DNA of 64,000 nucleotides. It comes from Symmachiella macrocystis. GTDB taxonomy: Bacteria; Planctomycetota; Planctomycetia; Planctomycetales; Planctomycetaceae. Every line of letters starts with the position of its first letter. Within the stretch, counting starts at the first letter, position 1. The notes beneath the pieces were generated by a model, which saw nothing but the letters and a program-made list of their open reading frames with translations, was not told the origin of the DNA and did not search any database. This document shows, piece by piece, positions 7,941 to 21,952 of the stretch. Location: contig NZ_SJPP01000003.1 in the NCBI RefSeq assembly GCF_007860075.1, forward strand, positions 496,001 through 560,000, read 5' to 3'. The translations under genes were made by a program, and so were the position numbers.

Positions 7941-8022
7941 GAGTAGCACCCTCAGGGCCAACTCCTCACGAGCTTTTCACATTTGCGTTATTTTGGTGGC
8001 CACATGTGATCTGAGTAGGAAT

Positions 8023-8113
8023 CTGCGCTAATGCGCAAATAAATGCGGATAAGCGCAAACACCATAAACGAAGTCGCATATATATTGTGAACTCTACACA
8101 TCTTGTGGAAAAT
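8023..8113 (+). promoter_or_regulatory. Dual-palindrome operator plus promoter upstream of the FHA gene
   Basis: Site 1 CTGCGC-TAAT-GCGCAA is at 8023-8038. Site 2 ATGCGG-ATAA-GCGCAA is at 8043-8058, 20 bp further on. A TTGTGA -35-like box starts at 8085, exactly 42 nt after the start of site 2, and GAAAAT at 8108-8113 fits a -10 after a 17-bp spacer. The same layout and spacing occurs upstream of PEP-CTERM genes at 13.0, 14.2, 16.7, 17.5 and 20.9 kb. The leader to the FHA start is about 130 nt. The rest of the 305-bp gap from 7941 shows no gene. Confidence 0.7.
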
Positions 8114-8245
8114 AACAGCTGATTGTCCTTGGTATGCAATAGACATGGGCAACCCATGAATAAACGCGATGACGTGCTGAACTATTGAACTGCAAGATTC
8201 CGCGTTTCCACACGGTCGTTTTCGAGAACCGAAGAATTTCAAGGA

Positions 8246-10021
8246 ATGATGTTCGTAAATCCCGATAACCAGAGTGCAGAAAACTCACCCTATCAATTGT
8301 CCGCTTCCGGTTCGATTGCGCACCTAGGATATGTGCCTGAGTCCGATGTGGTTCAATTCCGCGACGATTGTGGCGTCGTGGGTGGCCGCGGTGAATTAAT
8401 GGTCAAGTCCTCAGAGGGGACGCTCCTACAGCGGATTGCTATCGATCGCCCTGGCATTCTAGTCGGCCGCGCGAACGGATGTGACATCCGCTTGCAACAC
8501 CCCGACGTCCGCTATCGCCACGCCTATCTTCAGTGCGTCGACGATCGAATCCTCCTCTGCGACCTCGGCAAGCGCGTTCGTGGTCGTCGCACGCAGCGGA
8601 ATGTCGTTTCCGAGCTTACTAAACACAACGATGTCGTCTCCGTCGGCCCCTATTCAATTCACCTTTCGCTCAACAACGACATTGAACGATCCAACCCCGC
8701 CCCACCCACAGTCGATCAAACAGACTCGTCGCGCCATTTTACCTGTGAACATCAACCGCTCACGATCCAGCTCGAACTCTTTGCGGGAGCCGCTAAGCCC
8801 ACGACGTTCGATGTCAGACACGATCTGACGCTGATCGGAAAAGGACGAGCCTGCAAAGTACGATTGATCCATCGCAGTGTCTCCAAGGTGCATTGTAGTC
8901 TCGTGCGTACAAGATCAGGCCTCTGGGTCGTTGATTTATTAGGCCGTGGAGCCGGCACGTTAGTCGATGGTCGCCGCGTCAGATTTGCACAACTGCATAA
9001 TGACAGTGTTTTGCAAGTCGGCAAATTCAGCGCTCGTATCTCGATCACCGAATCGGAGCCTTCGACAACCACCCCATCGAACGCCCCTCCGTTGTCTGCA
9101 GTTCAGTTTGCAGAGCCTCACCTGCAAGTGTCCGACAACGCCACTTCCGATCCCACAACAATCGGGCACAACGGAACATCATCCCTCACCCATTATGCGC
9201 CAACACAGCTACAAACTAGCCAACAAAGTCAGAACCTGGCTCACCCACACAATAATGGTCAAGCGAACCATGTGGAAAGCCAGTCGGACCACCGGCTGAT
9301 CGAAATCGTCCGATCGATGCTCGCGGAGTTTGGTGCCACCCAGACTGATGTCGTCGAACGCATGCATGATTCGACGATCGAGATGCTTCAGGTCATCACC
9401 GCTTTACAAAGCAACCAAATCGACTCACTCCGTGAAGAACTGCAACGCGTCCACGAAATCAACGCTGAATTGCTTGGCCTGCAGAAGAAGTCCTGGCAGG
9501 CGATGGAATCGGCAATGCAACAACAGTCGGCGATTGAGCATACTGCCCCCGCCAAAGACGTCGCAGCCCTGTTGAAAACCGGCCGCGAGTTGTCGCAACG
9601 CATGGAATCGCTCCCCAGCCAAATCGCCGCCGCCGTCGCAGCAACAGCGCCGAAAGAACAAACAATTACGGTCAACCACCCAGAGCGAATCACCCAAGCG
9701 GAACCCACGGCCAAAGTCAGTAACACAAATACCTCGAACTCAAAGCCGCTTGAATCCACACCCGACAAAGCCCTGCATGAAGCCACACCGAAGACAAATA
9801 CGAAAGTCGACGAGGAATCGGTGCCCCCCAGTGCCGAACAGGTGGCTGCTAAAAGTGATCTGGAAGAGAGTAACAACAGCGCAAAGCGAGTGCCAAACAA
9901 TCCCACATCCCAAGCCAAAGTCGAACTCGGCCACGCCTGGGTCTGCGGCCGCATCGCCACGCTACAAAAAGAACGTGACAGCCGTTGGGAAAAAATCAAA
10001 CGCGTCTTCGGCGGGGATTGA
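8246..10021 (+). CDS. Double FHA-domain protein with coiled coil
   Basis: 591 residues without signal peptide or membrane segment. FHA 1 (about residues 50-145) keeps the GR of the phosphopeptide loop (LVGRANGCDIRL) but has R-H where S-x-x-H is usual. FHA 2 (about 175-270) is more canonical, with LIGKGRACKVRL and SVSKVHCSL. FHA domains bind phosphothreonine, so it may read Ser/Thr kinase signals. Residues about 350-440 look coiled coil (LREELQRVHEINAELLGLQKK). A Ser/Thr/Asn-rich linker and a short basic C-terminus follow. ATG 8246 and ATG 8249 are both possible starts. The shared promoter suggests co-regulation with the PEP-CTERM genes. A second, single-FHA protein lies at 62.1 kb. Confidence 0.85.
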   Translation: MMFVNPDNQSAENSPYQLSASGSIAHLGYVPESDVVQFRDDCGVVGGRGELMVKSSEGTLLQRIAIDRPGILVGRANGCDIRLQHPDVRYRHAYLQCVDDRILLCDLGKRVRGRRTQRNVVSELTKHNDVVSVGPYSIHLSLNNDIERSNPAPPTVDQTDSSRHFTCEHQPLTIQLELFAGAAKPTTFDVRHDLTLIGKGRACKVRLIHRSVSKVHCSLVRTRSGLWVVDLLGRGAGTLVDGRRVRFAQLHNDSVLQVGKFSARISITESEPSTTTPSNAPPLSAVQFAEPHLQVSDNATSDPTTIGHNGTSSLTHYAPTQLQTSQQSQNLAHPHNNGQANHVESQSDHRLIEIVRSMLAEFGATQTDVVERMHDSTIEMLQVITALQSNQIDSLREELQRVHEINAELLGLQKKSWQAMESAMQQQSAIEHTAPAKDVAALLKTGRELSQRMESLPSQIAAAVAATAPKEQTITVNHPERITQAEPTAKVSNTNTSNSKPLESTPDKALHEATPKTNTKVDEESVPPSAEQVAAKSDLEESNNSAKRVPNNPTSQAKVELGHAWVCGRIATLQKERDSRWEKIKRVFGGD

Positions 10022-10180
10022 CGGGTGAACCGGCCGATTTCATCACGAATGCTGTCGCCGATACATCACTGGCAATGCTCTTATTCTCTGCACTCAGTAT
10101 TTATGGCGGTGAGCGCTAACGGAATTGTTGAGCAACTACGGTGAACAGCAAGGCGGAATGTACATCAATCCGTTCAGCTG

Positions 10181-11818
10181 GTGTGTCAGATTTTCATACC
10201 GATGGCCTCTATATTCAAGAACCAACGCTCGCCAATGGCAGGTAACGAACATCTGATTTGTAGCCCTTTAAGGAACGCCAGGACTTGGTTGGCGATTTCT
10301 TGTCTGTTGATCGTCCTCTGGGCATCCGAAAACTTTTTGCTACAGGCTTTGACGCTAATTTCAGACGCCCCTTCGCCCGAAAGTGCCCTAATAAGCCGAC
10401 CGATAAAGCGAAGCCTAGTCCGTGCAACAATTAACCTGTTGTCTGCAAGTGTGATTGTTTTGCTAGCCCCACGATGGCTCCTGAGGCTTGTTATTGTCCT
10501 GGACGGAATTGCGAGCATTATTCTTTATGCGTACTTTGACTATTTTTCTTTCCCACTGTCCTGGACAGTGATGGTCAATCAATCGACAGAAGGAGCGACT
10601 TTCACTGATAGCCTACTGGCACTTATTCCACCTGGAATAGCTGTTGGCATTACCATTTGTATCGCCCTAAATCTCGCGCTAATTTCGTTACGGGACAGAT
10701 ACTTGAAACCAACGATATTAGCCCGACAATGGGGCATCCGTATTGGGATTTGTTATTTCACACTTGTTTTTGTTCTTGTCGCTTTCATCCGCCCAATGAG
10801 CGGTTTGGCAACGTGGCATTCGCTGAGCCACATCGGGAGCCTCTATGGCTACACGATTTCTTGGGGAGGGGAGTCTGCCTACCGTGATAACGAGAACTTG
10901 CTCCAAATGGCAAACGAAGCGGCAAAAGTCACAAGCGACAAGCTGGCAAATATCGAACCTGACATCGGGTTCAATGGGCATATTGTGATTATTCAGGTAG
11001 AAAGTTTGGATTACGCGATCCTTAACTCACAAGTTAATAACCGCTGGGTAATGCCAAGACTTAGACGTCTTCTTTCAGGTGGCATTTCATATGAGATTGA
11101 AGCCGTTCACCAAAGCGGATCGTCAGACGCGGATTTCGTGATGCTGACAGGTCGATTGCCCGTGGGAATCGTGGCTCCATATCGAGTAGACGGATTTGAA
11201 TACAAGGATTGTTTGCCTCACCTCGCAAAAACACATGGTTATGAAACCGTCTCACTGCATGGGAATCGTGGCACGTTTTTCTCAAGACGGGCATGCTTTC
11301 AACAAATGGGATTTGATCGATTATTGTTTCAAGAAGAATTGGTGACCCTTGGGTTGCCAGAATCAGATTGGGGGATCGAGGACTCAAGGGTTTTTGAAAT
11401 GTCTTCCGACCTCATTGAACAGTCGACTCAGCCACAGTTCCACTTTCTGGTAACACTTACAACCCACACTCCATTCTCATTTCTTCCAGCGAATGCACCT
11501 CAGTTATTTTCAGAGAGCACAAGTATGCTCCAGAAGTATTGCAACAACATGTATTACATGGACCGGATCTTATGTGATTATCTACAGAGATTGCCGGAGC
11601 AGACCACCGTTGTTATTTATGGAGATCACGATTCTCGGGTCAAGTACGAATCCAAAGGTGACACCACCCTTGAACGGGTACCATTCGCAATAATACGTGT
11701 AGGGGAACAAATTCAGCAAAACAGGTTGCAGGAGACGAATGTTGCGATCGGCTTGCTGGACTGTGCAACTTATGTGCGTCGTCAGTTTGGCGTCACTCCA
11801 GCACGGCGACCCCGGTGA
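10181..11818 (+). CDS. LtaS-like membrane phosphotransferase/sulfatase-fold protein
   Basis: Up to 545 residues. GTG 10181 is the longest start; ATG 10202 or 10235 are equally possible because no ribosome site stands out. Four or five transmembrane segments fill residues 35-205. The extracytoplasmic alkaline-phosphatase-fold domain shows the LtaS signatures: metal-binding Glu274 (VESLD), HGN at 360-362, DWGIED at 396-401, LTTHTPF and GDHDS at 481-485. The catalytic Thr of LtaS (G-K-T-S-D) aligns with Ser314 in QSGSSDAD. Family members transfer glycerol-phosphate or phosphoethanolamine from lipids to glycans. With the adjacent phosphodiester glycosidase this suggests a phosphate-substituted glycan. 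The product is not predictable. Confidence 0.8.
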   Translation: MCQIFIPMASIFKNQRSPMAGNEHLICSPLRNARTWLAISCLLIVLWASENFLLQALTLISDAPSPESALISRPIKRSLVRATINLLSASVIVLLAPRWLLRLVIVLDGIASIILYAYFDYFSFPLSWTVMVNQSTEGATFTDSLLALIPPGIAVGITICIALNLALISLRDRYLKPTILARQWGIRIGICYFTLVFVLVAFIRPMSGLATWHSLSHIGSLYGYTISWGGESAYRDNENLLQMANEAAKVTSDKLANIEPDIGFNGHIVIIQVESLDYAILNSQVNNRWVMPRLRRLLSGGISYEIEAVHQSGSSDADFVMLTGRLPVGIVAPYRVDGFEYKDCLPHLAKTHGYETVSLHGNRGTFFSRRACFQQMGFDRLLFQEELVTLGLPESDWGIEDSRVFEMSSDLIEQSTQPQFHFLVTLTTHTPFSFLPANAPQLFSESTSMLQKYCNNMYYMDRILCDYLQRLPEQTTVVIYGDHDSRVKYESKGDTTLERVPFAIIRVGEQIQQNRLQETNVAIGLLDCATYVRRQFGVTPARRPR

Positions 11819-11891
11819 GCTATACGTACAACAATGCGATTGACTAGCTGCCAATCAACGTGCTCGGCAAATGAGTCACAGGGGAGGATTC

Positions 11892-12971
11892 ATGGCTAGA
11901 ACGCTACAGGAACGAATACAGCAACCATGGGTCACGTCGGCAATTGCTTTTGGTTTCATCGTGCCTCCATCGCTCATGGTCACGGTGACTTGGCCAAGCA
12001 TGATGACTCTGGTCGCATTTGGGATGTGGCCATTCGCTGCGATTTGGATCATGCAGCGAGGGAAAATGCGATCCTCGCGATTCCGCACATTCTGCTATGG
12101 CCTCTTGCTCTTTGGCGTGAGTCCCTTCGTGATCCTTGGAACGTTTCAGGCGTTTTACCGTTTCGGACCACGCCCTGTACCTGGCACCACGCCTCTCTTT
12201 CATGGCGTTGACTACATCCGCATAGTTCTCGACGAACCAACGCCGGCGGTCGTGCATATCCTAAAGGTTGACCTCAAGGCGGACGGCGTGGAAGTGTTTG
12301 TCACGCCACCTGAGTATGCAGATGGCGTCTTTGCGGTGGAGCCGCGTACGACCTCTCAGTTCTTAAGTGAATTCGGTCTTCAGGCAGCAATCAACGGTTC
12401 CCACTTTTCCCCGTTCGAGCGGCGAAATCCTCTGTCGTACATCCCGTACTGGAGCGATCCGAAAGACGTGCTGGGCGGAGCAGCTTCGCGATGGGCTCAA
12501 TATGGCACTCCGAAACACTGGTGCCCTGTGCTGCACATCGATGAAAGCGGCCATGGCACGATTGCTCGGTCTTTAGAGCGTCCCTGGTACACAGCGACAG
12601 CCGGCACGAGACATTTCATTGTGGAGGGCGAGCCAAGTTCAGTGGATTCCGGCCCGTTCGATGCAATGACCGCAGCCGGCCTTGATGCGGAAGGTCGGAC
12701 TCTGTTCCTCGTCGTCGTCGATGGGGATCAGCTGCCCTATAGCGAGGGGATTGACCAAATCGGGCTCGCATCACTCTTACTCGACCAGGGTGTCTACAAC
12801 GCAATTCGACTCGATGGAGGCGGCTCTTCGACGATGCTTTCCCAGGGCACCTTCGGAATCCCCATTCGACTGAATCGACCGGTTCAGGGAGGCTTCCTCG
12901 GCATTGAGCGACCGGTCGGCAATCACATCGGTGTTTTTGCTAAGCCTCTTGCGTTCTCAGGTCCACCGTAA
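11892..12971 (+). CDS. Phosphodiester glycosidase (NAGPA) domain membrane protein
   Basis: 359 residues from ATG 11892, which has a GGGGAGGA site just upstream; an in-frame ATG at 11871 is the alternative. Two hydrophobic segments (AIAFGFIVPPSLMVTV and the YGLLLFGVSPFVILGTF region) anchor the protein. The C-terminal 240 residues match the NAGPA/exopolysaccharide phosphodiester glycosidase fold: AINGSHFSPF, TAGTRHFIVEGE, LFLVVVDGDQLPYSEG and the hallmark IRLDGGGSSTML. Such enzymes hydrolyse sugar-phosphodiester bonds, as in the uncovering enzyme of lysosomal glycoproteins. It follows the LtaS-like gene by about 70 bp, so the two may add and remove phosphodiester groups on the same surface glycan (inference). 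Its stop is 16 bp before the next operator. Confidence 0.85.
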   Translation: MARTLQERIQQPWVTSAIAFGFIVPPSLMVTVTWPSMMTLVAFGMWPFAAIWIMQRGKMRSSRFRTFCYGLLLFGVSPFVILGTFQAFYRFGPRPVPGTTPLFHGVDYIRIVLDEPTPAVVHILKVDLKADGVEVFVTPPEYADGVFAVEPRTTSQFLSEFGLQAAINGSHFSPFERRNPLSYIPYWSDPKDVLGGAASRWAQYGTPKHWCPVLHIDESGHGTIARSLERPWYTATAGTRHFIVEGEPSSVDSGPFDAMTAAGLDAEGRTLFLVVVDGDQLPYSEGIDQIGLASLLLDQGVYNAIRLDGGGSSTMLSQGTFGIPIRLNRPVQGGFLGIERPVGNHIGVFAKPLAFSGPP

Positions 12972-12987
12972 ATCAAGCCACGCGTTT

Positions 12988-13079
12988 TTGCGCATTTGCG
13001 CAAATTTACGTGGATGAGTGCAAAGCATCGACGACAACGGATTTATTTGTTGACGAAACGAAACAACACAACACACAAT
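12988..13079 (+). promoter_or_regulatory. Dual-palindrome operator and promoter (PEP-CTERM gene 1)
   Basis: Site 1 TTGCGCATTTGCGCAA (12988-13003) is a perfect palindrome with 7-bp arms. Site 2 ACGTGGATGAGTGCAA (13008-13023) starts 20 bp later. The -35 TTGAC starts at 13050, 42 nt after the start of site 2, and CACAAT at 13074-13079 is an 18-bp-spaced -10 candidate. The gene starts 62 nt further at 13141. Confidence 0.75.
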
Positions 13080-13140
13080 GGCACCTGGGCCAATCGTCAG
13101 TGATTGGCCACCCAATATCAAGTACAAGGATTTTTTCATC

Positions 13141-13929
13141 ATGAAACGATTACTTCTAGCCGGACTGCTGAGTTTTGGCTTGCTGTCCACTGCTCAGGCC
13201 GAAACGGTAAGGCCTTACGATTCATTTGGTGATCTTGGTTCGAACTTCTACACAATCACCCCTGGCGTAACTACAATCAGTCTGGGCGACGGGACGGGCC
13301 CCAATCCGGGTGGCGAGTTCACAGTTGACAAGATCAACGGTGATGCGACTTACAACCCCTACTGGTCAGGCTTCTGCGTCGAGTATTCTGAGCATTTTGC
13401 CTACAATGAAAACATGGAAGTCTACGGCATTTCAGACTATGCCGATGACGGCGGTCCACCTGCCAATAGTGTTGACTATCTATCCGATGAGACCAGGTGG
13501 CTTTTTGCCCAATTTTGGACCAAAGATTTGTTTGGCGTAAACGGTAGCGGCACAACACAACTTGATGGTTATTATGACAATCAAGCTAACAACGCAAAAT
13601 ATCTGCAACAAGCGATATGGATGCTGGAAGACGAGATAACTGTTAACGACCAAAACTGGTATTACAAGTCTGCGAAGGCAGCCGTGCTTGCGGGCACTGC
13701 CGAAGGTGTGGCCCGGTTCGATGACGTGAAAGTCTTAAACCTATATAGACAGAATCTAGACAGTCAAGGCAATCCAGTCAAAGCTCAGGACCAATTGGTC
13801 GTCATCGGCGATGGATTAGGTGAGAGCCCCGAAGTGCCCGAACCCTCTTCATTCGCTGGCCTGATCGGCATCTTTAGCGTCTCACTACTCGGCTACGGTT
13901 GGCGACGTAAACAGCAACAGGTTGCGTAA
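13141..13929 (+). CDS. PEP-CTERM protein 1 with thioester-domain-like Cys and Gln motifs
   Basis: 262 residues from ATG 13141 (AAGGAT upstream); the longer frame from 13078 only adds leader sequence before the signal peptide MKRLLLAGLLSFGLLSTAQA. The tail VPEPSSFAGLIGI..GYGWRRKQQQ is a PEP-CTERM sorting signal, read by an exosortase that is not in this window. The secreted body contains GFCVEYSEHF (Cys79) and YLQQAIWMLE (Gln156), which resemble the [FY]C and Q-x-A-I-W halves of TQXA-type thioester adhesin domains. Surface attachment is therefore plausible but unproven. It has its own promoter and terminator. Confidence 0.85.
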   Translation: MKRLLLAGLLSFGLLSTAQAETVRPYDSFGDLGSNFYTITPGVTTISLGDGTGPNPGGEFTVDKINGDATYNPYWSGFCVEYSEHFAYNENMEVYGISDYADDGGPPANSVDYLSDETRWLFAQFWTKDLFGVNGSGTTQLDGYYDNQANNAKYLQQAIWMLEDEITVNDQNWYYKSAKAAVLAGTAEGVARFDDVKVLNLYRQNLDSQGNPVKAQDQLVVIGDGLGESPEVPEPSSFAGLIGIFSVSLLGYGWRRKQQQVA

Positions 13930-13957
13930 AGAAACAACTTGATCCATGGTTTTGAGG

Positions 13958-13990
13958 AAACCGTCGGCGTGAAAGCGTTGGCGGTTTTCT
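13958..13990 (+). terminator. Rho-independent terminator after PEP-CTERM gene 1
   Basis: CCGTCGGCG pairs with CGTTGGCGG (three G-U pairs) around a TGAAAG loop, followed by TTTTC. It is the same stem family as the terminators at 15298, 15780, 17417, 18392 and 21918. Confidence 0.85.
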
Positions 13991-14164
13991 GTTGCACTGG
14001 CCGGTTTGCTGCCCCCAAAGACATAGCTTTTGTGCCGCCACACCCTCCTCTTTTATGGGGTAACCCCGAATGGTGGAATGAAATATTTTATTGTATCGCT
14101 CGGCAATTTCCATCAGGCCGTTATAGCGCGGTGACAACGTCTTTCTTCTGCTTGGGACGCTACG

Positions 14165-14255
14165 TTGCGCATCAGCGCAATTTATTGTGGGCTTGCGCAA
14201 ACTTCAGACGTCGTAGCGACCAAGTGTTGACACACAACAGTCGCATTTCCACACT
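14165..14255 (+). promoter_or_regulatory. Dual-palindrome operator and promoter (PEP-CTERM gene 2)
   Basis: Site 1 TTGCGC-ATCA-GCGCAA (14165-14180, perfect 6-bp arms) and site 2 TTGTGG-GCTT-GCGCAA (14185-14200) are 20 bp apart. The -35 TTGACA is at 14227-14232, 42 nt after the start of site 2, and CACACT at 14250-14255 is the -10 (17-bp spacer). The coding start is 14394. Confidence 0.78.
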
Positions 14256-14393
14256 AAGGTCTGTAACACGGTTGATGACAACTTTTGTTGCTTGCCCATA
14301 GACGCATGCTTGATTTCAAGATTCGTCGTAGCAAGCAGTCAACACAGAGCTTTTCTTCTCTTTTCACTATTTAACTCAAGGGAGCTTCAACAA

Positions 14394-15269
14394 ATGCGAC
14401 GTTTTTCGATTCGTATACTCTTGGCAACTCTAGTAAGCGTTTTCGTTTTCGGGACTGCGAGTGCTGAAGAAATTAAAATCACTACGATCGAATCATATCC
14501 GCCGTCTGGTGACCAAGTCTGGTTTTATTCTGACATGAGAGGCAATGGAACCGCATCAACTGTTGATCTGTCTGGTGAAGGTGGTAATTTGGAAGGCGCC
14601 GCGCCATTGCCAATCGGGGCGGCTTTGTTAACTACTGGAGCGAGCAATGGCGACAAAGCAGAAATTGCCGTGACTGACAGTTGGGGTACTGCAGGAAGTC
14701 TGATAGGAGACGTCAATTTCTCGACAGGTTACTCGTACTACAAAGATTCATCTGGCGACTTGCTGAACGCGACGGCGGCACCCTCTATAAAGCTATCATT
14801 TTACAATGCAGCCTACGATGACGTATCTGGTCAAGATGGGTTCGTGACTTTAGTTTACGAACCTTACTGGAATCAGGTCAGCAACCCTGGCGCATCCGTC
14901 GCGCCCCCAACAGATACGTGGACGACGGTAAGTATCGATGCTAACTCTGGTCTATTTTGGAACACGGGGGGATTTGGTCAGACTAGTTCAGCTGGAGGAC
15001 CGCCACTGCTAACTCTTGCTGACTGGTTGACGACTTTCGACAGTGCTTTTGCATCTGCTGAACTGTCGGCTGTCAGCATGGGTATCGGTACCTACAATCA
15101 GGGACAAACGGGGTATTTTGACAACGTCTCAATTACCAGTTCTCTAGCAAGTACAACCTACAACTTTGAACCTGTGCCAGAACCTTCCAGCATCGCCATG
15201 CTGTTAGGACTCGGCACATTCGGACTGGTCGGTTACCGTTGGCGGCGTAAACAGCAACAAGCGGTGTGA
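14394..15269 (+). CDS. PEP-CTERM protein 2
   Basis: 291 residues from ATG 14394, preceded by AAGGGAG at a good distance; the frame upstream to 14292 is leader. The signal peptide ends near ASAEE (residues 21-25). The body is beta-rich and ends in a DNVSITSSL strand typical of jelly-roll, concanavalin-like surface domains. The tail VPEPSSIAMLLGL..GYRWRRKQQQAV is the PEP-CTERM signal. The tail is closest to that of the protein at 21.1 kb (both S-x-IAMLLGL), so these two form a subgroup distinct from the STYAGLLGI group. The function of the body is not recognised. It is a monocistronic cassette with its own promoter and terminator. Confidence 0.83.
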   Translation: MRRFSIRILLATLVSVFVFGTASAEEIKITTIESYPPSGDQVWFYSDMRGNGTASTVDLSGEGGNLEGAAPLPIGAALLTTGASNGDKAEIAVTDSWGTAGSLIGDVNFSTGYSYYKDSSGDLLNATAAPSIKLSFYNAAYDDVSGQDGFVTLVYEPYWNQVSNPGASVAPPTDTWTTVSIDANSGLFWNTGGFGQTSSAGGPPLLTLADWLTTFDSAFASAELSAVSMGIGTYNQGQTGYFDNVSITSSLASTTYNFEPVPEPSSIAMLLGLGTFGLVGYRWRRKQQQAV

Positions 15270-15297
15270 ATCGACCCGGTCACGACAATTGAAACGC

Positions 15298-15330
15298 AAA
15301 CCGTCGTCGCAATCGCGTCGGCGGTTTTTT
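15298..15330 (+). terminator. Rho-independent terminator after PEP-CTERM gene 2
   Basis: AAACCGTCGTCG pairs with CGTCGGCGGTTT, followed by six T. It belongs to the shared stem family of this cluster. Confidence 0.85.
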
Positions 15331-15514
15331 GATGCGCTTAAGACACTTCTATCGCACGGCTGATGCACAAAACACAATGCCCTCCCCGATTATCGTGCGA
15401 AAACACGTTGGTCTGTGGGGTTTTTCGCGTACACACTTCTCGCTTTTTTCGTCTAGTAATATAGGCAGCCTCAACGCATCCCATTTTTGATCACGCTTAA
15501 TCCGGATTGAAGTC

Positions 15515-15757
15515 TTGTCTCTGTTTGCTCAACAGTCACCGTCTGCTTTCAAGACTGCGCTCGATATATTCTCCGACGCAACAACCATCATCATGGCAGC
15601 TGCGGTGCTGTTGCTGCTTTTGACTGTCGTTGTAGCTTTGTCGCAAACCCTATCCGTAGATGGTGGCATGAGTGGCAATGGAAACGCGCTCGCAAAAGGC
15701 GGCGCAAACAAAATCACGATATTCCTTGGCGTGGTTGACACGCAACATTGTGATTGA
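15515..15757 (+). CDS. Possible small membrane protein (weak)
   Basis: 80 codons from a TTG at 15515; an ATG at 15593 would give 54 residues. One strong hydrophobic segment (IIMAAAVLLLLLTVVVALS) is followed by a Gly/Asn-rich stretch. No ribosome site, no PEP-CTERM tail and no operator upstream are seen. A terminator of the PEP-CTERM cassette family follows 22 bp after the stop, so the stretch could be a small gene that uses it or the relic of a decayed cassette. Family not recognised. Confidence 0.3.
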   Translation: MSLFAQQSPSAFKTALDIFSDATTIIMAAAVLLLLLTVVVALSQTLSVDGGMSGNGNALAKGGANKITIFLGVVDTQHCD

Positions 15758-15779
15758 ATCAATTTGGCAGACAACCTCC

Positions 15780-15811
15780 CACCATCGGCGTAAAACGTCG
15801 GTGGTTTTTTC
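15780..15811 (+). terminator. Cassette-family terminator without a clear PEP-CTERM gene
   Basis: ACCATCGGCG-TAAAA-CGTCGGTGGT followed by TTTTT. The stem has compensatory changes (CCA with TGG) compared with the other cluster terminators, so the structure is conserved although the bases differ. Confidence 0.8.
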
Positions 15812-16232
15812 GTGAGCCATATTTGGCGTCGGCCGGCGCAACGCGGGCCGCTGAGTCGGCTATCAGTTTGTATCGCACCAGCGCGAAGGCTTTCCGTTGA
15901 TGTCATCCACACGGCGCTTGCATATTGCAACCGGTGGGTAACTCTTCCCGTACTATCAATCAATCTTCCTCTATTCTATTGAGTCGTGTTTTCATTGCGC
16001 ACCGATTGCGAAAACTGTATCCACACCCCAATAGCCGACCGGTGTGTTATGGACTAAAACCGTTGCTTCGTGAGGGATTTACAACGTTTTTCAGCACAAT
16101 GGTTTTGGGTGTTACCCTCGATCGAAGCTGATTCTCTGGTTTTTTCTTGAACTGCCAATTCGCTGATGTACAGTGCCAATCATTCACCGATTCGAATGAG
16201 ACGGAGTCTCGCCATTCACTTTGGGCTATGGT
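15812..16232. other. Intergenic stretch with no recognised gene
   Basis: About 420 bp with no convincing coding frame, no copy of the dual palindrome and no terminator. A single TTGCGCACCGATTGCG sequence near 15995 is not palindromic. Confidence 0.5.
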
Positions 16233-16535
16233 ATGACAACACGCATTCACGTAGCGAAAGCCCTGACACCCAACGAACATTGGTCCGCTTGGTTTGACGA
16301 GAATCCGACACTCGCCTTTGCTGGTGAATCACTCAGCGAGGCCGTTGATGGCCTACTAGAAATCGCCCAACTGGATTCAGCGACTCTCAATGTTGATTTG
16401 TCACAATGCAACAAGGGCGAAGTTGTTTTTATACACGACGGAAAGACGTGCCAAGACTGTGACGGGACCGGGAGGTACATCGGGTTATACAAGGTCGCTA
16501 AGTGCGACGCCTGTGGCGGGAGCGGTTGGGTCTGA
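16233..16535 (+). CDS. HicB-like domain joined to DnaJ-type zinc ribbon
   Basis: 100 residues from ATG 16233 (a TTG at 16221 is in frame). The N-terminal half (HWSAWFDENPTLAFAGESLSEAVDGLL) resembles the HicB/partial-RNase-H-like fold, where a W-x-A-W-F strand is followed by G-x-S-x-x-E-A. The C-terminal third carries CQDCDGTG and CDACGGSG, two C-x-x-C-x-G-x-G repeats like one zinc centre of the DnaJ cysteine-rich domain. No HicA toxin lies next to it. Function is not known; zinc binding is the safest statement. It is the only non-PEP-CTERM gene with clear coding character inside the cluster. Confidence 0.65.
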   Translation: MTTRIHVAKALTPNEHWSAWFDENPTLAFAGESLSEAVDGLLEIAQLDSATLNVDLSQCNKGEVVFIHDGKTCQDCDGTGRYIGLYKVAKCDACGGSGWV

Positions 16536-16706
16536 ATCGGGGGTCGCTCTGCCCCCCATACTCGCTACTTCAACCAGGGAATGTGAACTGCCGAGATTGC
16601 TGAGCGATAGGAATTCTGTAAACATCGTCTGCCAATCCACAATTCATTTTAGCGCGCTGCCGTCACACTGGCCCTAGCGGTCCCAGTTTTCATGCAAGGC
16701 ACCACT

Positions 16707-16799
16707 CTGCGCCAAACCGAAGGTTTATTGCGGGTGCCCGCAAATCGCCGCGGATGCCTCGTATCCTTGTTGACAGCCTGACTGATGACGATTCATACT
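16707..16799 (+). promoter_or_regulatory. Dual-palindrome operator and promoter (PEP-CTERM gene 3)
   Basis: Site 2 TTGCGGGTGCCCGCAA (16728-16743) is a perfect 7-bp-arm palindrome with a changed core. Site 1 (CTGCGC-CAAA-CCGAAG, 16707-16722) has a decayed right arm and is 21 bp upstream. The -35 TTGACA is at 16770-16775, again 42 nt from the start of site 2, and CATACT at 16794-16799 is the -10 (18-bp spacer). Confidence 0.72.
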
Positions 16800-16861
16800 G
16801 CGATGGCTCGCATTCGTCGGGTTGGATTCAAATCAAGGAATATCAGACCGAGGATGGAATT

Positions 16862-17395
16862 ATGAAGCGATGGATTGGAATCTCGGTGGCGTGCGTTGCA
16901 CTCGTGGTTGTCGCGGGAAAGCAGGTGCAAGCGGAGATCATAACTACATCTTTTACGGGAACAGTGATTAATCCACTGCCCTATGCAGGCACGACTGGAA
17001 TAGGAACATTTTCCTATGATGATGCCGGCCTGACAGGCATTGGTCCTGAGATCGTTGCTGCCCCCTCGGGGTTGATGATAGACTTCACCATTTTCGGACA
17101 AACATTCACACAACTGGATGACATCCAATATAACGCCTTTCCCCAACTGACTTTGCTCGAAGGCGTTCCTGATTATTTGGATTTCGTAATTGATGAAATC
17201 TCGACGCCTATTGATGAACCGAATGTATTAGCCATAAGAGTTCAAAGCGATCTTACTCCTGATGGATTGGGCGGGTATACCGCAGACGTAAATTTGGTTA
17301 TCACACCTGAACCCAGTACCTACGCTGGACTCCTCGGTATCATCGGCGTCTCGCTGCTCGCCTACGGTTGGCGACGCAGAAAGCAGGCTGTTTAA
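16862..17395 (+). CDS. PEP-CTERM protein 3
   Basis: 177 residues from ATG 16862, with GAGG 8 nt upstream. The signal peptide ends around QVQAE. The short secreted body begins ITTSFTGTVINPLPYAGTTG (a beta-strand-rich pattern common in small PEP-CTERM proteins, with GIGTFSYDDAGL). The tail TPEPSTYAGLLGI..LLAYGWRRRKQ is the sorting signal; the first residue is Thr instead of the usual Val. The tail is nearly identical to those of the genes at 17.7 and 18.8 kb, suggesting recent duplication or gene conversion at the 3' end. Body function unknown. Confidence 0.83.
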   Translation: MKRWIGISVACVALVVVAGKQVQAEIITTSFTGTVINPLPYAGTTGIGTFSYDDAGLTGIGPEIVAAPSGLMIDFTIFGQTFTQLDDIQYNAFPQLTLLEGVPDYLDFVIDEISTPIDEPNVLAIRVQSDLTPDGLGGYTADVNLVITPEPSTYAGLLGIIGVSLLAYGWRRRKQAV

Positions 17396-17416
17396 GTTTG
17401 AATTGCCCATGAAGTT

Positions 17417-17452
17417 CAACCGTCGGTGTGACAACATTGGCGTTTTTTTTGT
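17417..17452 (+). terminator. Rho-independent terminator after PEP-CTERM gene 3
   Basis: CGTCGGTG-TGACAA-CATTGGCG followed by eight T, with several G-U pairs. It is a member of the shared terminator family. Confidence 0.85.
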
Positions 17453-17540
17453 GCTTCACGCCTGCCGATTCGCGGGCTGTTTTTGTGCGATGTGGTGACT
17501 CACATAGCGGTCGTGCCGCGATTGCTCTCCCAATGCCGTT

Positions 17541-17632
17541 CTGCGCTTTTACGCAAGAAAATGCGGACATGTGTAATCTGTCGTAGACGGCCCGTATTCT
17601 TGTTGACGGCTTGAAGAGACGCAGTCCATACT
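17541..17632 (+). promoter_or_regulatory. Dual-palindrome operator and promoter (PEP-CTERM gene 4)
   Basis: Site 1 CTGCGC-TTTT-ACGCAA (17541-17556, one arm mismatch) and site 2 ATGCGG-ACAT-GTGTAA (17561-17576) are 20 bp apart. The -35 TTGACG starts at 17603, 42 nt from the start of site 2. CATACT is at 17627-17632 (18-bp spacer). The sequence around the core (CGTAT-TCTTGTTGAC-GGC and CATACTGCGA) is almost the same as for gene 3. Confidence 0.75.
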
Positions 17633-17694
17633 GCGAGTTGCTCGCCATTGTCCGGTTGAATTCGGTTCAGGGTAATGTCGCAGAGGTGAACGCG

Positions 17695-18369
17695 ATGAAG
17701 CGAATGAAGAGAAATATTTACCGAAACCTATTGCTCGTTTCCGTTAGCATTTCAACACTGTTAGGGAGCGCCAAAGTAGCCAATGCCGAACTAATGATCG
17801 ATGTCACTGGACTTGGCGGTGATGGATTCACGACGTGGACATTTTCTGGAACGTCAATCGCATCGTCGTCCGAGTCTATTCCAACAGGAACCAACAACAT
17901 ACCCGGCTTCTCAGACGTTGGACAGCTGAGTTCCGACGGAACTACATCTGGACTTCATGTGATTCTTGATGACGGTATTCAGAACCAGTTGTTCCCCGTA
18001 TTGTCTGGATTAGCTACGGTGACAGTTGGGGCAGACACGCAGTCGATTACCCATGTCATCCTGGATGCTGATTCTGGTACCAATCCAGATGATATTGGCA
18101 TTCGGGTTGATTCTTTGTTGAGTTATTTGGCAGGGGAAACATCATCTTGGACAGGATCGATTGTTGTTGGTGTTGACCTGAATGATCTGCGTACCGGTTC
18201 ATTTACAAATGTTGGTTCAGCCCCGTTGTTTTCTAGTGGGCAAGGGGAATTAAAAATGAACGTCAATACTCCCGTCCCCGAACCCAGTACCTACGCCGGA
18301 CTCCTCGGCATCACCGGCGTGTCTCTGCTCGCTTATGGCTGGCGACGCAAACGGCAACACGCTGTGTGA
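17695..18369 (+). CDS. PEP-CTERM protein 4
   Basis: 224 residues from ATG 17695 (AGAGG upstream); an ATG at 17704 is also possible. The signal peptide is basic then hydrophobic (NLLLVSVSISTLLG) with cleavage near ANAE. The Ser/Thr/Gly/Asp-rich secreted body is beta-rich, with no recognised domain. The tail VPEPSTYAGLLGI..SLLAYGWRRKRQ is the PEP-CTERM signal. The neighbouring cassettes at 16.9 and 18.8 kb share this tail. A terminator follows directly. Confidence 0.83.
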   Translation: MKRMKRNIYRNLLLVSVSISTLLGSAKVANAELMIDVTGLGGDGFTTWTFSGTSIASSSESIPTGTNNIPGFSDVGQLSSDGTTSGLHVILDDGIQNQLFPVLSGLATVTVGADTQSITHVILDADSGTNPDDIGIRVDSLLSYLAGETSSWTGSIVVGVDLNDLRTGSFTNVGSAPLFSSGQGELKMNVNTPVPEPSTYAGLLGITGVSLLAYGWRRKRQHAV

Positions 18370-18391
18370 AACACATTGGCAATGAACTTGC

Positions 18392-18424
18392 AGCCGTCGG
18401 CGCGAAAATGCCGGCGGTTTTTTC
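18392..18424 (+). terminator. Rho-independent terminator after PEP-CTERM gene 4
   Basis: GCCGTCGGCG, a loop and TGCCGGCGG followed by six T. It belongs to the shared terminator family. Confidence 0.85.
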
Positions 18425-18471
18425 GTAGCCGCATGTAGCCGCATGGATACATCATGATCTAATCGTCGTCT

Positions 18472-18507
18472 TTGCGCGTTTCCGCAGGATCATGTGGAGA
18501 GCCACAA
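18472..18507 (+). promoter_or_regulatory. Diverged dual-palindrome operator upstream of PEP-CTERM gene 5
   Basis: Site 1 TTGCGC-GTTT-CCGCAG (18472-18487) and site 2 ATGTGG-AGAG-CCACAA (18492-18507) keep the 20-bp spacing. At the place of the -35 (18534) there is CTGCGC instead of TTGAC, and no CATACT-like -10 follows. Either the core promoter has decayed or another one nearer the gene (start 18765) is used. Confidence 0.5.
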
Positions 18508-18764
18508 AAGGCCTTCGCCAAAACGTGTGCAGTCTGCGCAAAAAGACTTGCTTGTGCCTGCAATTCGATTCGGCAGTTTCGAATCTTTTTGAATCAAATC
18601 GTTCACTCAGATTTTTTGAGAAAAATCGAGAAAAACTAAATTATTCGTGACCCATTTCGGCTGCCTTTTTCGCATTACTATCGGGGACTTGTCCCGTAAC
18701 ACATCGACGGACAACTGAACCAGCTGTCCATGGATCAAACAACCAGAGAAATAGGGGGTATGCA

Positions 18765-19907
18765 ATGCGCAACTTCGTATCGGCCTGCTTGGCCGTGACG
18801 ATTGGTTTAGGGGGTTCTGCCGTATTTGCCGAATTGACTACGTTCAACACCGTAACCAACACTTATATTGACGAAGGGCAAACCACCAACGTGACTTATG
18901 GCGTGTCGGTAGGCGGCACCGAACACTTTAGCTCAGGATCTTATCGCTACAACGACGGTCCTGGGATTTTTTCCGGCCCTACTGGAGGTTCAGTCTACCA
19001 CACCGAGAACGTCTATGACCCCAATCGGACCATGTCTTCGCGGTCGGGCACCCTGAAGTACTACCAGGATGGCACTTACCAAACTAGCGTTTCTACTCAA
19101 AATCTCCGTGTGTACGAAGAGCGATATGGTAACGAGCATTATACGATTAAGACCTATAATCAAACGGGATCTACGCGAACGATCACCGTGCGAAACGTCG
19201 CGCCAACGATCACCAATTTCACGGTCAACGGTGCCACAGTGGGGTCTGTACCATATCTCAATATTTATGAAGGCCAGTCGGTATCAGCAAACATGACCGC
19301 GACTGACCCTGGGCTATACGATGATCTCCGATTTGTGGTGGATGTCGATAGTGCATCACAGGTGACACTGGGAACTGATTACGATACTGAATACCAGCGA
19401 CAAATCGGAGGTCTTGTTGGAGATTTCACCCAAAGTGGCCCCGGATACGACATTTTCGAATTGAGGGGGGGCGTCTACGATGATGATACGGTGACGTGGG
19501 ACAATGCTACGATTGATATTCGCGTCCACAATCTCAATCCAATCATCGACTTTATCTCATCGAGCGCAACCATCGAGGTGGGTGACTCATTTAGCTTTGG
19601 AGCATCTGCGCATGACCCTGGCGACGATCCGTTGCTATATCGCTGGGATCTGGATGGCGACGGCTACTACGATGATCTTATCGGCACCGGTATGACCGGC
19701 CTGTTCGATCTGGGTACTCACCAGTTTAGACTTCAAGTTACCGATGGAGACGGAGGTTACGCTTCCCGCGGACTGACGCTCAACGTCGTCGAGCCACCCT
19801 CTGAGGCCGCAGTCCCCGAACCTAGCACCTACGCCGGACTTCTCGGCATCACCTGCGTCTCCCTGCTCGCATACGGCTGGCGGAAGCGACGTATGGCCAC
19901 CCCCTAA
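18765..19907 (+). CDS. PEP-CTERM protein 5 with PKD-like domains
   Basis: 380 residues from ATG 18765. Signal peptide (LAVTIGLGGSAVFAE). Two Ig-like modules are visible: one around residues 145-240 (NVAPTITNFTVNG, then EGQSVSANMTATDPG) and one around 245-345 with the PKD hallmarks (NPIIDFISSSATIEVGD, YRWDLDGDG, VTDGDGGYAS). PKD domains usually act as spacers or in protein-protein and protein-glycan contacts on the cell surface. The tail VPEPSTYAGLLGI..LLAYGWRKRR is the PEP-CTERM signal, with a Cys inside its hydrophobic stretch. No terminator follows, and the next PEP-CTERM gene starts 87 bp later without a promoter of its own, so the two are probably co-transcribed. Confidence 0.83.
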   Translation: MRNFVSACLAVTIGLGGSAVFAELTTFNTVTNTYIDEGQTTNVTYGVSVGGTEHFSSGSYRYNDGPGIFSGPTGGSVYHTENVYDPNRTMSSRSGTLKYYQDGTYQTSVSTQNLRVYEERYGNEHYTIKTYNQTGSTRTITVRNVAPTITNFTVNGATVGSVPYLNIYEGQSVSANMTATDPGLYDDLRFVVDVDSASQVTLGTDYDTEYQRQIGGLVGDFTQSGPGYDIFELRGGVYDDDTVTWDNATIDIRVHNLNPIIDFISSSATIEVGDSFSFGASAHDPGDDPLLYRWDLDGDGYYDDLIGTGMTGLFDLGTHQFRLQVTDGDGGYASRGLTLNVVEPPSEAAVPEPSTYAGLLGITCVSLLAYGWRKRRMATP

Positions 19908-19994
19908 AAGATTGAAATCAAACAACCGCCTGTGCGAAACAGTTTCACGAATGAGTCTGCCCTGCAGTTTTTTAACAACAAGGAGACCGACGTC

Positions 19995-20723
19995 ATGCTT
20001 CGATTGATCTCACGCAGTGCTTTGGTGTTAATGACGTTGGGGATTTGCCAAGGGGCGCCCTGTGATGCGGCCCCCATCGTGCCGGGGCAAACCACATTTT
20101 ATGGCCGCGCCATTCAAGATGTGCGAATTCTTGGCGGGACCTTAATCAACCCGGGTCCCGAGTTTGTGATCGACGACCTGTTTGGAGACGGCTACATCAC
20201 CATCGATCGCCAGGCCCAAGTCGGCAGTTCTATCAGTTTCACCGGAGTCGACAGCGTATTCACGGGATTTCGCCCAGAGTTGGGGCCGTATACGTTTGGT
20301 GCAGCAGGTTCGGTCGGCGTGGGGAGTTTTCACGGTACGATCGACAACATTGTCCAAAATCCTGCTGATCCCGGTTTCGCCGCTGGTGATCCTTCTAGCT
20401 TGATCAGCGGAGATCTAACTATTGACGTCCCTTCGTTTTATTTCCAACTCGCCGGTGGAGCTATCACGCTGGAAACCGGCGCTGAGTTTAGGTTTACGGC
20501 CGCGCTAGACGGCCTGCCGCCGCGGACGGCGACACTACTGGAGGGCCGTGTCCCGGTGAATGAAATCCCCGTCTATTTCGGGCAGGAATTGGTAGGCTAC
20601 AGCTCCGACCGCCGCATCGAATTACGCGCGGTGCCCGAACCGTCGAGCATGGTGCTGCTGGGCATCGGCGGATTGGCCCTGGTCGGATACGGAGTACGAA
20701 GCAAACGGCAACAAGCTGCGTGA
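19995..20723 (+). CDS. PEP-CTERM protein 6
   Basis: 242 residues from ATG 19995, which has a clear AAGGAG 9-10 nt upstream; the frame from 19932 is leader. Signal peptide (LVLMTLGICQGAPCDAA). The body (FSLTI-like strands, PSFYFQLAGGAITLETGAEFRF) is beta-rich and not recognised. The tail VPEPSSMVLLGIGGLALVGY ends GVRSKRQQ, with V-R-S-K in place of W-R-R-K, the most diverged tail of the cluster. It lacks the palindromes and follows the PKD gene closely, so it is likely the second gene of an operon. Its 3' hairpin is a collapsed version of the cluster terminator. Confidence 0.82.
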   Translation: MLRLISRSALVLMTLGICQGAPCDAAPIVPGQTTFYGRAIQDVRILGGTLINPGPEFVIDDLFGDGYITIDRQAQVGSSISFTGVDSVFTGFRPELGPYTFGAAGSVGVGSFHGTIDNIVQNPADPGFAAGDPSSLISGDLTIDVPSFYFQLAGGAITLETGAEFRFTAALDGLPPRTATLLEGRVPVNEIPVYFGQELVGYSSDRRIELRAVPEPSSMVLLGIGGLALVGYGVRSKRQQAA

Positions 20724-20744
20724 AACAAGTTGTTCATGAACATC

Positions 20745-20760
20745 CAACCGTCGGCGGTTG
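20745..20760 (+). repeat. Collapsed cassette terminator (hairpin without T-tract)
   Basis: CAACCG-TCGG-CGGTTG is a 6-bp stem not followed by T. The sequence is what remains if one of the two GTCGGCG copies and the loop between them are lost from the full terminator of this family. Confidence 0.55.
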
Positions 20761-20926
20761 ATTCGCACTCCTCGGCGCAAGAAAGTTCACGGCATACTGT
20801 TGGAATATTTTTTGCTGTCCCAACCCTCCTCGAATCAAACTTACCGTCTCCCGGGGTGAGTCGGAACTATGTAGCGTTAGCCTTTTCCCATCGTGCGATT
20901 GTCGCGAGTAACGCGACCACGCGGTT

Positions 20927-21017
20927 TTGCGCATCTGCGCAATTCTTTGTGGGCTTGCGCAAAATGCGGATATTGTAGCGATTGCTCGTTGATCGGACCG
21001 GAACCGTATTACATACT
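20927..21017 (+). promoter_or_regulatory. Dual-palindrome operator and promoter (PEP-CTERM gene 7)
   Basis: Site 1 TTGCGCATCTGCGCAA (20927-20942) is a perfect palindrome. Site 2 TTGTGG-GCTT-GCGCAA (20947-20962) is identical to site 2 of gene 2. The -35 TTGATC starts at 20989 (42 nt from the start of site 2) and CATACT is at 21012-21017 (17-bp spacer), followed by ACGA as CATACT is followed by GCGA in genes 3 and 4. Confidence 0.78.
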
Positions 21018-21076
21018 ACGAGTCACCTTTCGTCTATTGTTTTTTGAACACTTCACGAGAACAAGGGAGGCTGTAG

Positions 21077-21889
21077 ATGTTCAACAAGAGGCTGACGCAT
21101 CGAAGTTTGATGCTGACCAAATTGTTTGCGATTTCCGTAGTGTTACCATCCGCTGCGCATGCAGAATTTTCCCAAGGCTTTGAAACCGACACCAGTGGTT
21201 GGTCCGACGGTGGTGGTGCTTATGGCGTTATAACCCGAGTAGCATCTGGAACGGGCGGCATTACCTCAGCGGATGGCGGATACCATGCGACTGTTGAGCA
21301 GACAACCTATGGAGTTTATACCGCGTTTGATGGATATCGCAGTACTTGGCCCGGAAACTGGACTACTTCGGTGGACATCTATCTCGACATCGGTTGGGCG
21401 GCGGGGGAAGGGTTTGACTATTCGGTTGCCGCGAATGGCTCAGATGGAGCCCATGAGCGTGATTTCATCTTTCACGTCACGAAGGACACGTCAACGGGCG
21501 ATCTTTTGGTTGGTGCTAGCAACAACACCAATTTTGATCCTCGAGAAGACCTGGAAACCCTCAATCACGCGGTGATCGGTAGCAGCGGTTGGTACACCTT
21601 CGAACACTCTTTCCAGGATGTCGGTGGTGTGCTCTCAGTGGACTTGAATCTTTATGATGGCGGGGGGCTAATATGGACAGAAACGCGAAGTAATCCGGCC
21701 GATTTAATCCCGTCCATTGTTGGCGGAAATCGCTATGGATGGTTTACGAACGTAGACATTGCTGGCGGAATTGCAGTCGACAATACTGCCCTTGTGCCGG
21801 AACCCTCCAACATCGCAATGCTATTAGGGCTCAGTGCTTTCAGTCTGGCTGGTTACGGCTGGCGTCGTAAAAAGCAACAAGCGGCGTAA
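21077..21889 (+). CDS. PEP-CTERM protein 7
   Basis: 270 residues from ATG 21077, with GGGAGG upstream; an ATG at 21110 would shorten the basic N-terminus. The signal peptide ends near AHAE. The body starts FSQGFETDTSGWSDGGG, a typical opening of jelly-roll/carbohydrate-binding-like surface domains, and ends GIAVDNTAL, the closing strand of such folds. The tail VPEPSNIAMLLGL..GYGWRRKKQQ is the PEP-CTERM signal and groups with protein 2. Ligand unknown. It has its own promoter and terminator. Confidence 0.83.
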   Translation: MFNKRLTHRSLMLTKLFAISVVLPSAAHAEFSQGFETDTSGWSDGGGAYGVITRVASGTGGITSADGGYHATVEQTTYGVYTAFDGYRSTWPGNWTTSVDIYLDIGWAAGEGFDYSVAANGSDGAHERDFIFHVTKDTSTGDLLVGASNNTNFDPREDLETLNHAVIGSSGWYTFEHSFQDVGGVLSVDLNLYDGGGLIWTETRSNPADLIPSIVGGNRYGWFTNVDIAGGIAVDNTALVPEPSNIAMLLGLSAFSLAGYGWRRKKQQAA

Positions 21890-21917
21890 AGCGAGCCTGC
21901 CATTGTGAGGAATATGA

Positions 21918-21951: not shown

Positions 21952-21952
21952 G

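What the first reader, a model, noticed from the sequence alone, without database searches (positions are those of the whole stretch)
8023..21017. Shared promoter architecture: two palindromes at fixed spacing upstream of PEP-CTERM genes and an FHA gene
Seven upstream regions carry site 1 (TTGCGC-N4-GCGCAA) and, 20-21 bp further, site 2 (TTGYGG-N4-GCGCAA). In six of them (8.0, 13.0, 14.2, 16.7, 17.5, 20.9 kb) a TTG(A) -35 box starts exactly 42 nt after the start of site 2, and a CATACT/CACACT-type -10 follows 17-18 bp later (CACAAT at 13.0 kb, GAAAAT at 8.0 kb). The 20-bp offset is two helical turns, so two dimers would bind the same DNA face just upstream of RNA polymerase. It looks like an activator regulon for a set of surface proteins. 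To my knowledge this box is not described.
Basis: seen in the sequence. Interest (0 to 1): 0.85.

Follow-up and report, generated by a model that had tools for sequence, protein, structure and literature searches.

The report
Private promoter box of an exosortase island
A block of DNA acquired by one bacterium carries a surface-protein sorting enzyme together with surface-protein genes that share a paired palindromic control site not seen elsewhere in the genomes searched, which looks like a dedicated on-switch for that protein set.

Summary
Paired 16-bp palindromes, 20-21 bp apart, lie at the seven stated places; in six a -35 starts exactly 42 nt after site 2. The genome has three more copies, all before PEP-CTERM genes: two at 42 nt, one at 32 (one helical turn less). 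A promoter model finds nine promoters, then a gap. Palindrome arms are conserved; cores and flanks are not. The six strong window promoters lie in a 58.3-kb tRNA-Val island, with the empty site seen in congener G001. The island also holds an exosortase and a FixJ-type regulator for which neither congener showed an ortholog. Boxes precede 8 of 11 genes with YAGL/IAML tails and 0 of 33 other PEP-CTERM matches. Apart from one weak partial hit, no box was found in 169 other family genomes, and none of 16 pattern hits from 84,980 species has the architecture. Best reading: operator pairs of a class I-type activator for a private exosortase regulon; activation and regulator are inferred. The FixJ-type protein (Glu at the phosphorylation site) is the best candidate. 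New variant of a known kind: the proteobacterial PEP-CTERM box is sigma-54-linked; this is not.

The parts
8023..8058 (+). operator pair (site 1 8023-8038, site 2 8043-8058) of the FHA gene; -35 TTGTGA 8085-8090, -10 GAAAAT 8108-8113 (weakest core promoter)
12988..13023 (+). operator pair; -35 TTGACG 13050-13055, -10 CACAAT 13074-13079
16707..16743 (+). operator pair, 21-bp offset, degenerate site 1; -35 TTGACA 16770-16775, -10 CATACT 16794-16799
   Evidence: E 1.5e-4; E 8.8e-17
17541..17576 (+). operator pair; -35 TTGACG 17603-17608, -10 CATACT 17627-17632
18472..18507 (+). weak operator-like pair without a -35 at 42 nt, possibly a relic
   Evidence: E 0.045; E 0.009
20927..20962 (+). operator pair (no mismatch); -35 TTGATC 20989-20994, -10 CATACT 21012-21017
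8246..10021 (+). FHA-domain protein (FHA / Yop-YscD_cpl); homologs near exosortases in G179 and G184
13141..13929 (+). PEP-CTERM protein, YAGL tail type (PSSFAGLIGIFSVSLLGYGW)
14394..15269 (+). PEP-CTERM protein, IAML tail type
16862..17395 (+). PEP-CTERM protein, YAGL tail type
17704..18369 (+). PEP-CTERM protein, YAGL tail type
18765..19907 (+). PEP-CTERM protein, YAGL tail type, without a strong box
21077..21889 (+). PEP-CTERM protein, IAML tail type
3121..7548 (+). giant TPR protein, best NCBIfam match PrsT (201 bits, cut-off 312); TPR matches near other exosortases
7545..7940 (+). small HTH_Tnp_1-type protein, second candidate DNA-binding regulator, no ortholog found
22134..22152 (+). right end of the genomic island: exact 19-bp repeat of the tRNA-Val 3' end
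1..22152 (.). right part of the 58.3-kb island (G000:C3:459822-518152)

Best explanation
The paired palindromes are operators for one dimeric DNA-binding activator. Two dimers bind the same DNA face two turns apart, centred near -70 and -90 (near -60 and -80 in one promoter), and recruit sigma-70-type RNA polymerase in the class I manner. The regulon is nine promoters: the FHA gene and eight PEP-CTERM genes. It is the private expression channel of an exosortase/exopolysaccharide system that arrived on a 58-kb tRNA-Val island; cassettes of promoter, gene and terminator later spread to three other loci. Shown: sites, spacing, genome-wide set, conservation of the arms, island with empty site in one congener, co-restriction with the exosortase and tail type in the genomes searched. 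Inferred: activation, start sites, dimer binding, spread and order of events, and the regulator. Best candidate regulator: the island's FixJ-type protein encoded divergently from the NusG/exosortase operon, with half-sites in the shared intergenic DNA. My estimates: activator operators 0.75; this protein as the regulator 0.35.
For: Genome-wide search with the full promoter model gives 9 matches at E at most 9.5e-12, then a gap to 0.009; the promoter at C2:1036665, not used to build that model, scores 9.5e-12. C3:399, not used in the two-site model, is found at E 2e-4. Spacing outside the window: 42 (C3:916), 42 (C3:399, TAGACA) and 32 nt (C2:1036). Pairwise identity over 8 promoters (C2:1036 and the 18.5-kb copy left out): arms 84 and 79%, cores 37 and 40%, spacer 34%, site 2 to -35 38%, -35 73%, 60 bp upstream 29%. 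In the 7 of 28 pairs whose flanks fall below set limits of similarity, arms are 87% identical. Boxes before 8 of 11 YAGL/IAML-type genes and 0 of 33 other PEP-CTERM matches (Fisher p 9e-7, not corrected for relatedness, classes drawn up afterwards). For the exosortase, the tail type and the FixJ-type protein no ortholog was found in either congener; the empty island site was seen in G001 (G002 not examined). FHA, NusG and TPR matches lie near other exosortases in 2, 1 and 4 of 12 fetched stretches of other genomes. CRP activates strongly from -61.5 and -71.5, less from -81.5, hardly at -66.5 or -76.5 (PMC6301791, table passage). StyR/TodT-type operators have the same 6-N4-6 form, ATAAAC-N4-GTTTAT (PMC5874301, passage); the candidate's best solved matches are 1yio (StyR, name recalled) and FixJ.
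Against: No start sites, expression or binding data. Several promoters (16.7, 17.5, 20.9, C3:399, C3:916) also share downstream sequence, so nine promoters are fewer than nine independent cases. 3 of 11 YAGL/IAML genes lack a strong box; one lies closely behind a boxed gene, two share another upstream element. Upstream of the exosortase operon there are only weak single site-1-like matches (E 0.09-0.13 in 51 kb), no pair. The candidate regulator lacks the phosphorylated Asp (Glu instead), and no kinase appeared among the ORFs scanned. It was in none of the 14 exosortase stretches fetched. A small HTH protein in the island is equally species-restricted. No relative carries the box, so there is no cross-species footprint. 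u8.0 has a weak core promoter.
Confidence: 0.62

Rival explanations
1. The pair binds a repressor or a looping/architectural protein that silences these genes.
For: Near-consensus -35 boxes in most promoters would not need much help. Acquired islands are often silenced (recalled).
Against: Sites end 26 bp upstream of -35 and do not overlap the promoter; the fixed phase to -35 and the 10-bp shift point to contact with RNA polymerase.
Confidence: 0.15
2. The boxes are hitch-hikers: upstream DNA copied with recently duplicated PEP-CTERM cassettes, with no function of its own.
For: Several copies share extra similarity downstream of -35; the set is restricted to one genome.
Against: Arms are about 80% identical while cores, spacer and flanks are near background; this persists in pairs with dissimilar flanks; the FHA gene is unrelated to the PEP-CTERM genes.
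Confidence: 0.08
3. The regulon is real but its regulator is the small HTH_Tnp_1 protein (7545-7940) or a regulator encoded elsewhere, not the FixJ-type protein.
For: The HTH gene ends 82 bp before the first box and overlaps the end of the TPR gene; no ortholog found. Four other related response regulators were found in the genome at E 1e-20.
Against: Nothing found here links its DNA-binding fold to 6-N4-6 palindromes; the FixJ-type gene shares its intergenic region with half-sites.
Confidence: 0.4
4. The palindromes are recombination sites that move PEP-CTERM cassettes.
For: The boxed genes lie in DNA without an alignment of 200 bp or more at the compared G001 positions.
Against: The box lies inside, about 0.9 kb from the nearer edge of, the roughly 3-kb insertion at C3:914114-917062; a fixed distance to -35 would be unexplained.
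Confidence: 0.04

Closest known systems
Proteobacterial PEP-CTERM box with PrsK/PrsR/PrsT (Haft et al. 2006, PMC1569441, passages seen; RpoN dependence in Aquincola, PMC9850573, passages seen)
   Same: A conserved cis-regulatory region before many single-gene PEP-CTERM units (99 of 167 there), tied to an exosortase, polysaccharide genes and a TPR protein
   Different: There: a motif ending TTTACA plus a sigma-54 -24/-12 element and an NtrC-type PrsR, seen in 13 proteobacterial species and only in proteobacteria. Here: paired 6-N4-6 palindromes with a sigma-70-type -35/-10, a sigma-54 element in 0 of 9 promoters, one genome only
StyR/TodT operators (ATAAAC-N4-GTTTAT; PMC5874301, passage seen)
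   Same: 16-bp 6-N4-6 palindrome; a FixJ-type protein is encoded in the island
   Different: Different half-site; two copies at a fixed 20-bp step; candidate has Glu at the phosphorylation site; binding not shown
CRP class I promoters (PMC6301791, passages seen)
   Same: Operators on the helical phase of -61.5/-71.5/-81.5
   Different: Different sequence; start sites here are predicted, not mapped
tRNA-integrated genomic islands (recalled)
   Same: 19-bp tRNA 3'-end repeat at both ends, integrase-type gene, empty site in a congener
   Different: Cargo is an exosortase/exopolysaccharide system with its own substrate set; integrase appears partial

Membership tests
Haft PEP-CTERM box / PrsR regulon | sigma-54 -24/-12 element between the box and the gene | tested here: not met
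   0 of 9 upstream regions match TGGCACG-N4-TTGCW with at most 4 mismatches and the GG/G core (consensus recalled)
Haft PEP-CTERM box / PrsR regulon | NtrC-type PrsR with sigma-54 interaction domain near the polysaccharide genes | tested here: inconclusive
   none among the island ORFs scanned; not every island ORF was scanned and the rest of the genome was not searched for PrsR
Haft PEP-CTERM box / PrsR regulon | PrsT-like TPR protein | tested here: inconclusive
   window 3121-7548 best hit TIGR02917 at 201 bits, below the cut-off of 312
FixJ-type response regulator (candidate regulator) | receiver plus GerE HTH domains | tested here: met
   PF00072 2e-16 and PF00196 1.3e-16; FixJ model 162.8 bits, below its cut-off of 255
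FixJ-type response regulator (candidate regulator) | phosphorylated Asp | tested here: not met
   Glu in SELRTADVSG aligned with the Asp of 1yio and FixJ (which Asp is phosphorylated is recalled)
FixJ-type response regulator (candidate regulator) | binds this box | not testable with these tools
   needs a binding assay
Class I activator promoter | operators upstream of -35 on one helical face at fixed phase | tested here: met
   42 nt in 8 of 9 strong promoters, 32 nt in 1
Class I activator promoter | activation through contact with RNA polymerase | not testable with these tools
   needs transcription assays
tRNA-integrated genomic island | direct repeat of tRNA 3' end at both ends and empty site in a relative | tested here: met
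   19 bp at L070:3803-3821 and window 22134-22152; G001 contiguous at C1:4718.3 kb, flanks 89-92% identical
tRNA-integrated genomic island | integrase | tested here: inconclusive
   only SAM-like/central domains matched, in a 204-aa ORF near the tRNA

The most novel reading that the evidence does not exclude
A mobile exosortase system with a private regulatory code: the island brings a sorting enzyme, a matching PEP-CTERM tail type, and a paired-palindrome class I promoter read by a FixJ-type regulator whose phosphorylation site is Glu, so that it works without a kinase. The same code then recruits further substrates as promoter-gene-terminator cassettes settle elsewhere in the chromosome, keeping them apart from the host's two other exosortases and their unboxed PEP-CTERM genes.
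Probability: 0.22. Interest if true: 0.72.

Novelty: new variant of a known kind. Interest (0 to 1): 0.56.

Why it matters
How PEP-CTERM genes are switched on outside the proteobacteria is, as far as the searches here show, open; the 2006 study that defined the system found its upstream motif only in proteobacteria (PMC1569441, passages). Here promoter type, sorting-tail type and exosortase are restricted to one genome together. That gives a direct way to ask which exosortase processes which substrates in a genome with three exosortases and 44 PEP-CTERM matches, and how an acquired surface system keeps its own regulation.

Tried and rejected
A loose single-site search of the window is not above chance, so single palindromes prove nothing; only the pair does. 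A scan of 84,980 species genomes with a relaxed two-site pattern gave 16 matches; 0 of 16 has TTGA 45-99 nt downstream (recounted). The crude PEP-CTERM filter flagged three of the 16 loci (L076, L089, L090), none with a convincing tail. I take them as chance; the tool warns that the window's own record may be left out there. One weak partial hit in G128 (E 0.0096) was not followed. No box was found upstream of the exosortase operon: only weak single site-1-like matches at L070:16221 and 16275. Half-site 6-mers reach four in 90 bp at four places in 224 kb, three boxes and this one, but an overlapping self-complementary 8-mer counts twice, so this is a hint only. I looked for the FixJ-type protein, NusG, FHA, TPR, the HTH protein and other window genes in 14 fetched exosortase stretches (12 of other genomes, 2 of the own): the FixJ-type and HTH proteins were in none, FHA in two, NusG in one, TPR in five (one of them own). 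Genome searches scored only the best 150 (own, genus) or 38 (family, stricter filters) candidates per genome, so weak members can be missed. Orthologs of the island's polysaccharide genes were not searched for in the congeners, and the island site in G002 was not examined. No structure was predicted. One of the 44 PEP-CTERM matches (C1:3135638) shows no PEP motif in the matched stretch; it is counted among the 33.
Full report
WHAT IS THERE. The seven upstream regions were read directly and aligned. Each holds two 16-bp 6-N4-6 palindromes, some degenerate, 20 bp apart start to start (21 at 16.7 kb). In six, a -35 box starts exactly 42 nt after site 2 starts, and a -10 follows after 17-18 bp; the seventh (18.5 kb) is weak and has no -35 there. 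The pair is far above chance in the window, though a single loose palindrome is not.

GENOME-WIDE. The genome (7.57 Mb, six contigs) has five places with an exact site 1; all five are boxes. Two-site searches add three boxes outside the window: C3:916083 (+), C2:1036665 (+), C3:399001 (-). All three precede PEP-CTERM genes. Spacing to -35 is 42, 32 and 42 nt. The full-promoter model finds nine promoters at E at most 9.5e-12 and then a gap to 0.009. One promoter with exactly ten base pairs less is what helical phasing predicts.

SELECTION OR COPYING. Over eight promoters (C2:1036 and the 18.5-kb copy left out) the palindrome arms are 84% and 79% identical pairwise, the N4 cores 37% and 40%, the 4-5 bp between sites 34%, the 26 bp to -35 38%, -35 73%, the 60 bp upstream 29%. 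Some promoters (16.7, 17.5, 20.9, C3:399, C3:916) share more downstream sequence and are likely recent relatives, so the independent cases number fewer than nine. In the 7 of 28 pairs with flanks below set limits of similarity the arms are still 87% identical.

WHOSE GENES. The genome has 44 PEP-CTERM matches at E at most 1, 41 over the curated cut-off; all 44 tails were read. Nine carry a tail of the type PEPSTYAGLLGITCVSLLAYGW, found in none of the other 58 genomes searched at that score (at least 76.8 bits; next 56.0). Two window genes carry PEPS(S/N)IAMLLGL. Boxes stand before 8 of these 11 and 0 of the other 33. The three without: 18765 in the window (weak box only), C1:2058k, and C2:1039k, which follows a boxed gene closely. 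I drew up the classes after seeing the boxes, and the genes are related, so the Fisher value (9e-7) is only a guide. The ninth promoter serves the FHA gene.

THE ISLAND. G000:C3:459822-518152 (58.3 kb, GC 0.523 against 0.55 in the flanks) is absent from congener G001, where the two flanks are contiguous at 89-92% identity. The last 19 bp of tRNA-Val are repeated exactly at window 22134-22152. So window 1-22152 is the island's right part. The island holds an integrase-type fragment, a primase-like gene, an IS3-type transposase gene, a FixJ-type regulator, a NusG-like antiterminator, an exosortase, polysaccharide genes, the TPR protein, a small HTH protein, the FHA gene and the PEP-CTERM genes. 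The exosortase is one of three in the genome; its best match in G001 is 42% and none was found in G002 at E 1e-30. The three boxed genes outside the island also lie in stretches without an alignment of 200 bp or more at the compared positions of G001, for example a roughly 3-kb insertion at C3:914114-917062; the 3' end of the C3:399 gene does match a G001 PEP-CTERM locus elsewhere at 69%.

ELSEWHERE. Of 170 family genomes only the own one has clear boxes; G128 has one weak partial hit. Neither congener has any at E 0.1. The pattern scan over 84,980 species gave 16 matches, none with the architecture.

HOW IT MOST LIKELY WORKS. With a 17-18 bp spacer and a start 6-7 nt after -10 (recalled rule), site 2 is centred near -70 and site 1 near -90; at C2:1036665 near -60 and -80. 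For CRP, activation is strong at -61.5 and -71.5, moderate at -81.5, and next to nothing at -66.5 and -76.5 (PMC6301791, table passage). This is the position and phase of a class I activator. A repressor is less likely, because the sites do not touch the promoter.

THE REGULATOR. Best candidate: L070:14273-14989, encoded divergently from the NusG/exosortase operon, receiver plus GerE domains, best solved matches 1yio (StyR, name recalled) and FixJ, no ortholog in 58 relatives (best 38%). StyR-type proteins use 6-N4-6 palindromes (PMC5874301, passage). Its phosphorylation site is Glu, so it may act without a kinase. The shared intergenic region has two weak site-1-like matches and a cluster of half-sites. 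The small HTH protein is a second candidate. This step is inference.

COMPARED WITH WHAT IS KNOWN. The proteobacterial PEP-CTERM box is tied to sigma-54 and PrsR; its authors saw it only in proteobacteria (PMC1569441, passages). Here a sigma-54 element is seen in 0 of 9 regions and no PrsR among the island ORFs scanned. So it plays the same part but fails a defining feature and is not filed as a member. Six literature searches (open-licence papers only) listed no paper whose title or abstract start describes such a box in a planctomycete; apart from the passages cited (and passages of PMC12188702), the papers were not read.

Noticed in passing
window 22134-22152 and L070:3803-3821: 19-bp direct repeat of the tRNA-Val 3' end marks a 58.3-kb genomic island with an empty site in congener G001.
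   Followed up: yes
window 18614-18703 and L035:665-752: Two YAGL-type PEP-CTERM genes without a strong box share a different, roughly 90-bp upstream element.
   Followed up: partly
L070:16170-16310: Upstream of the NusG/exosortase operon: three GAAGCC-type direct repeats (read by eye) mixed with TTGCGC half-sites and site-1-like matches.
   Followed up: partly
L065:3779-4033 and window about 15510-15760: A small membrane-protein ORF ends just before the C3:916 box; a decayed-looking copy lies about 1 kb before the 16.7-kb box, read by eye, hinting at cassette duplication.
   Followed up: no
window 13955, 15295, 17420, 18390, 21920 (approximate): Several PEP-CTERM genes are followed by a similar terminator-like repeat with GTCGGCGGTTTTTT or close to it (read by eye), so units look like promoter-gene-terminator cassettes.
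   Followed up: no
L154 and G001:C1:1569982-1570758: Another exosortase of the genome lies in an open frame of 1751 aa, as does its counterpart in G001: an unusually long frame.
   Followed up: no
window 10181-12971: A sulfatase-domain protein and a phosphodiester glycosidase (NAGPA) lie between the FHA gene and the first PEP-CTERM gene.
   Followed up: no
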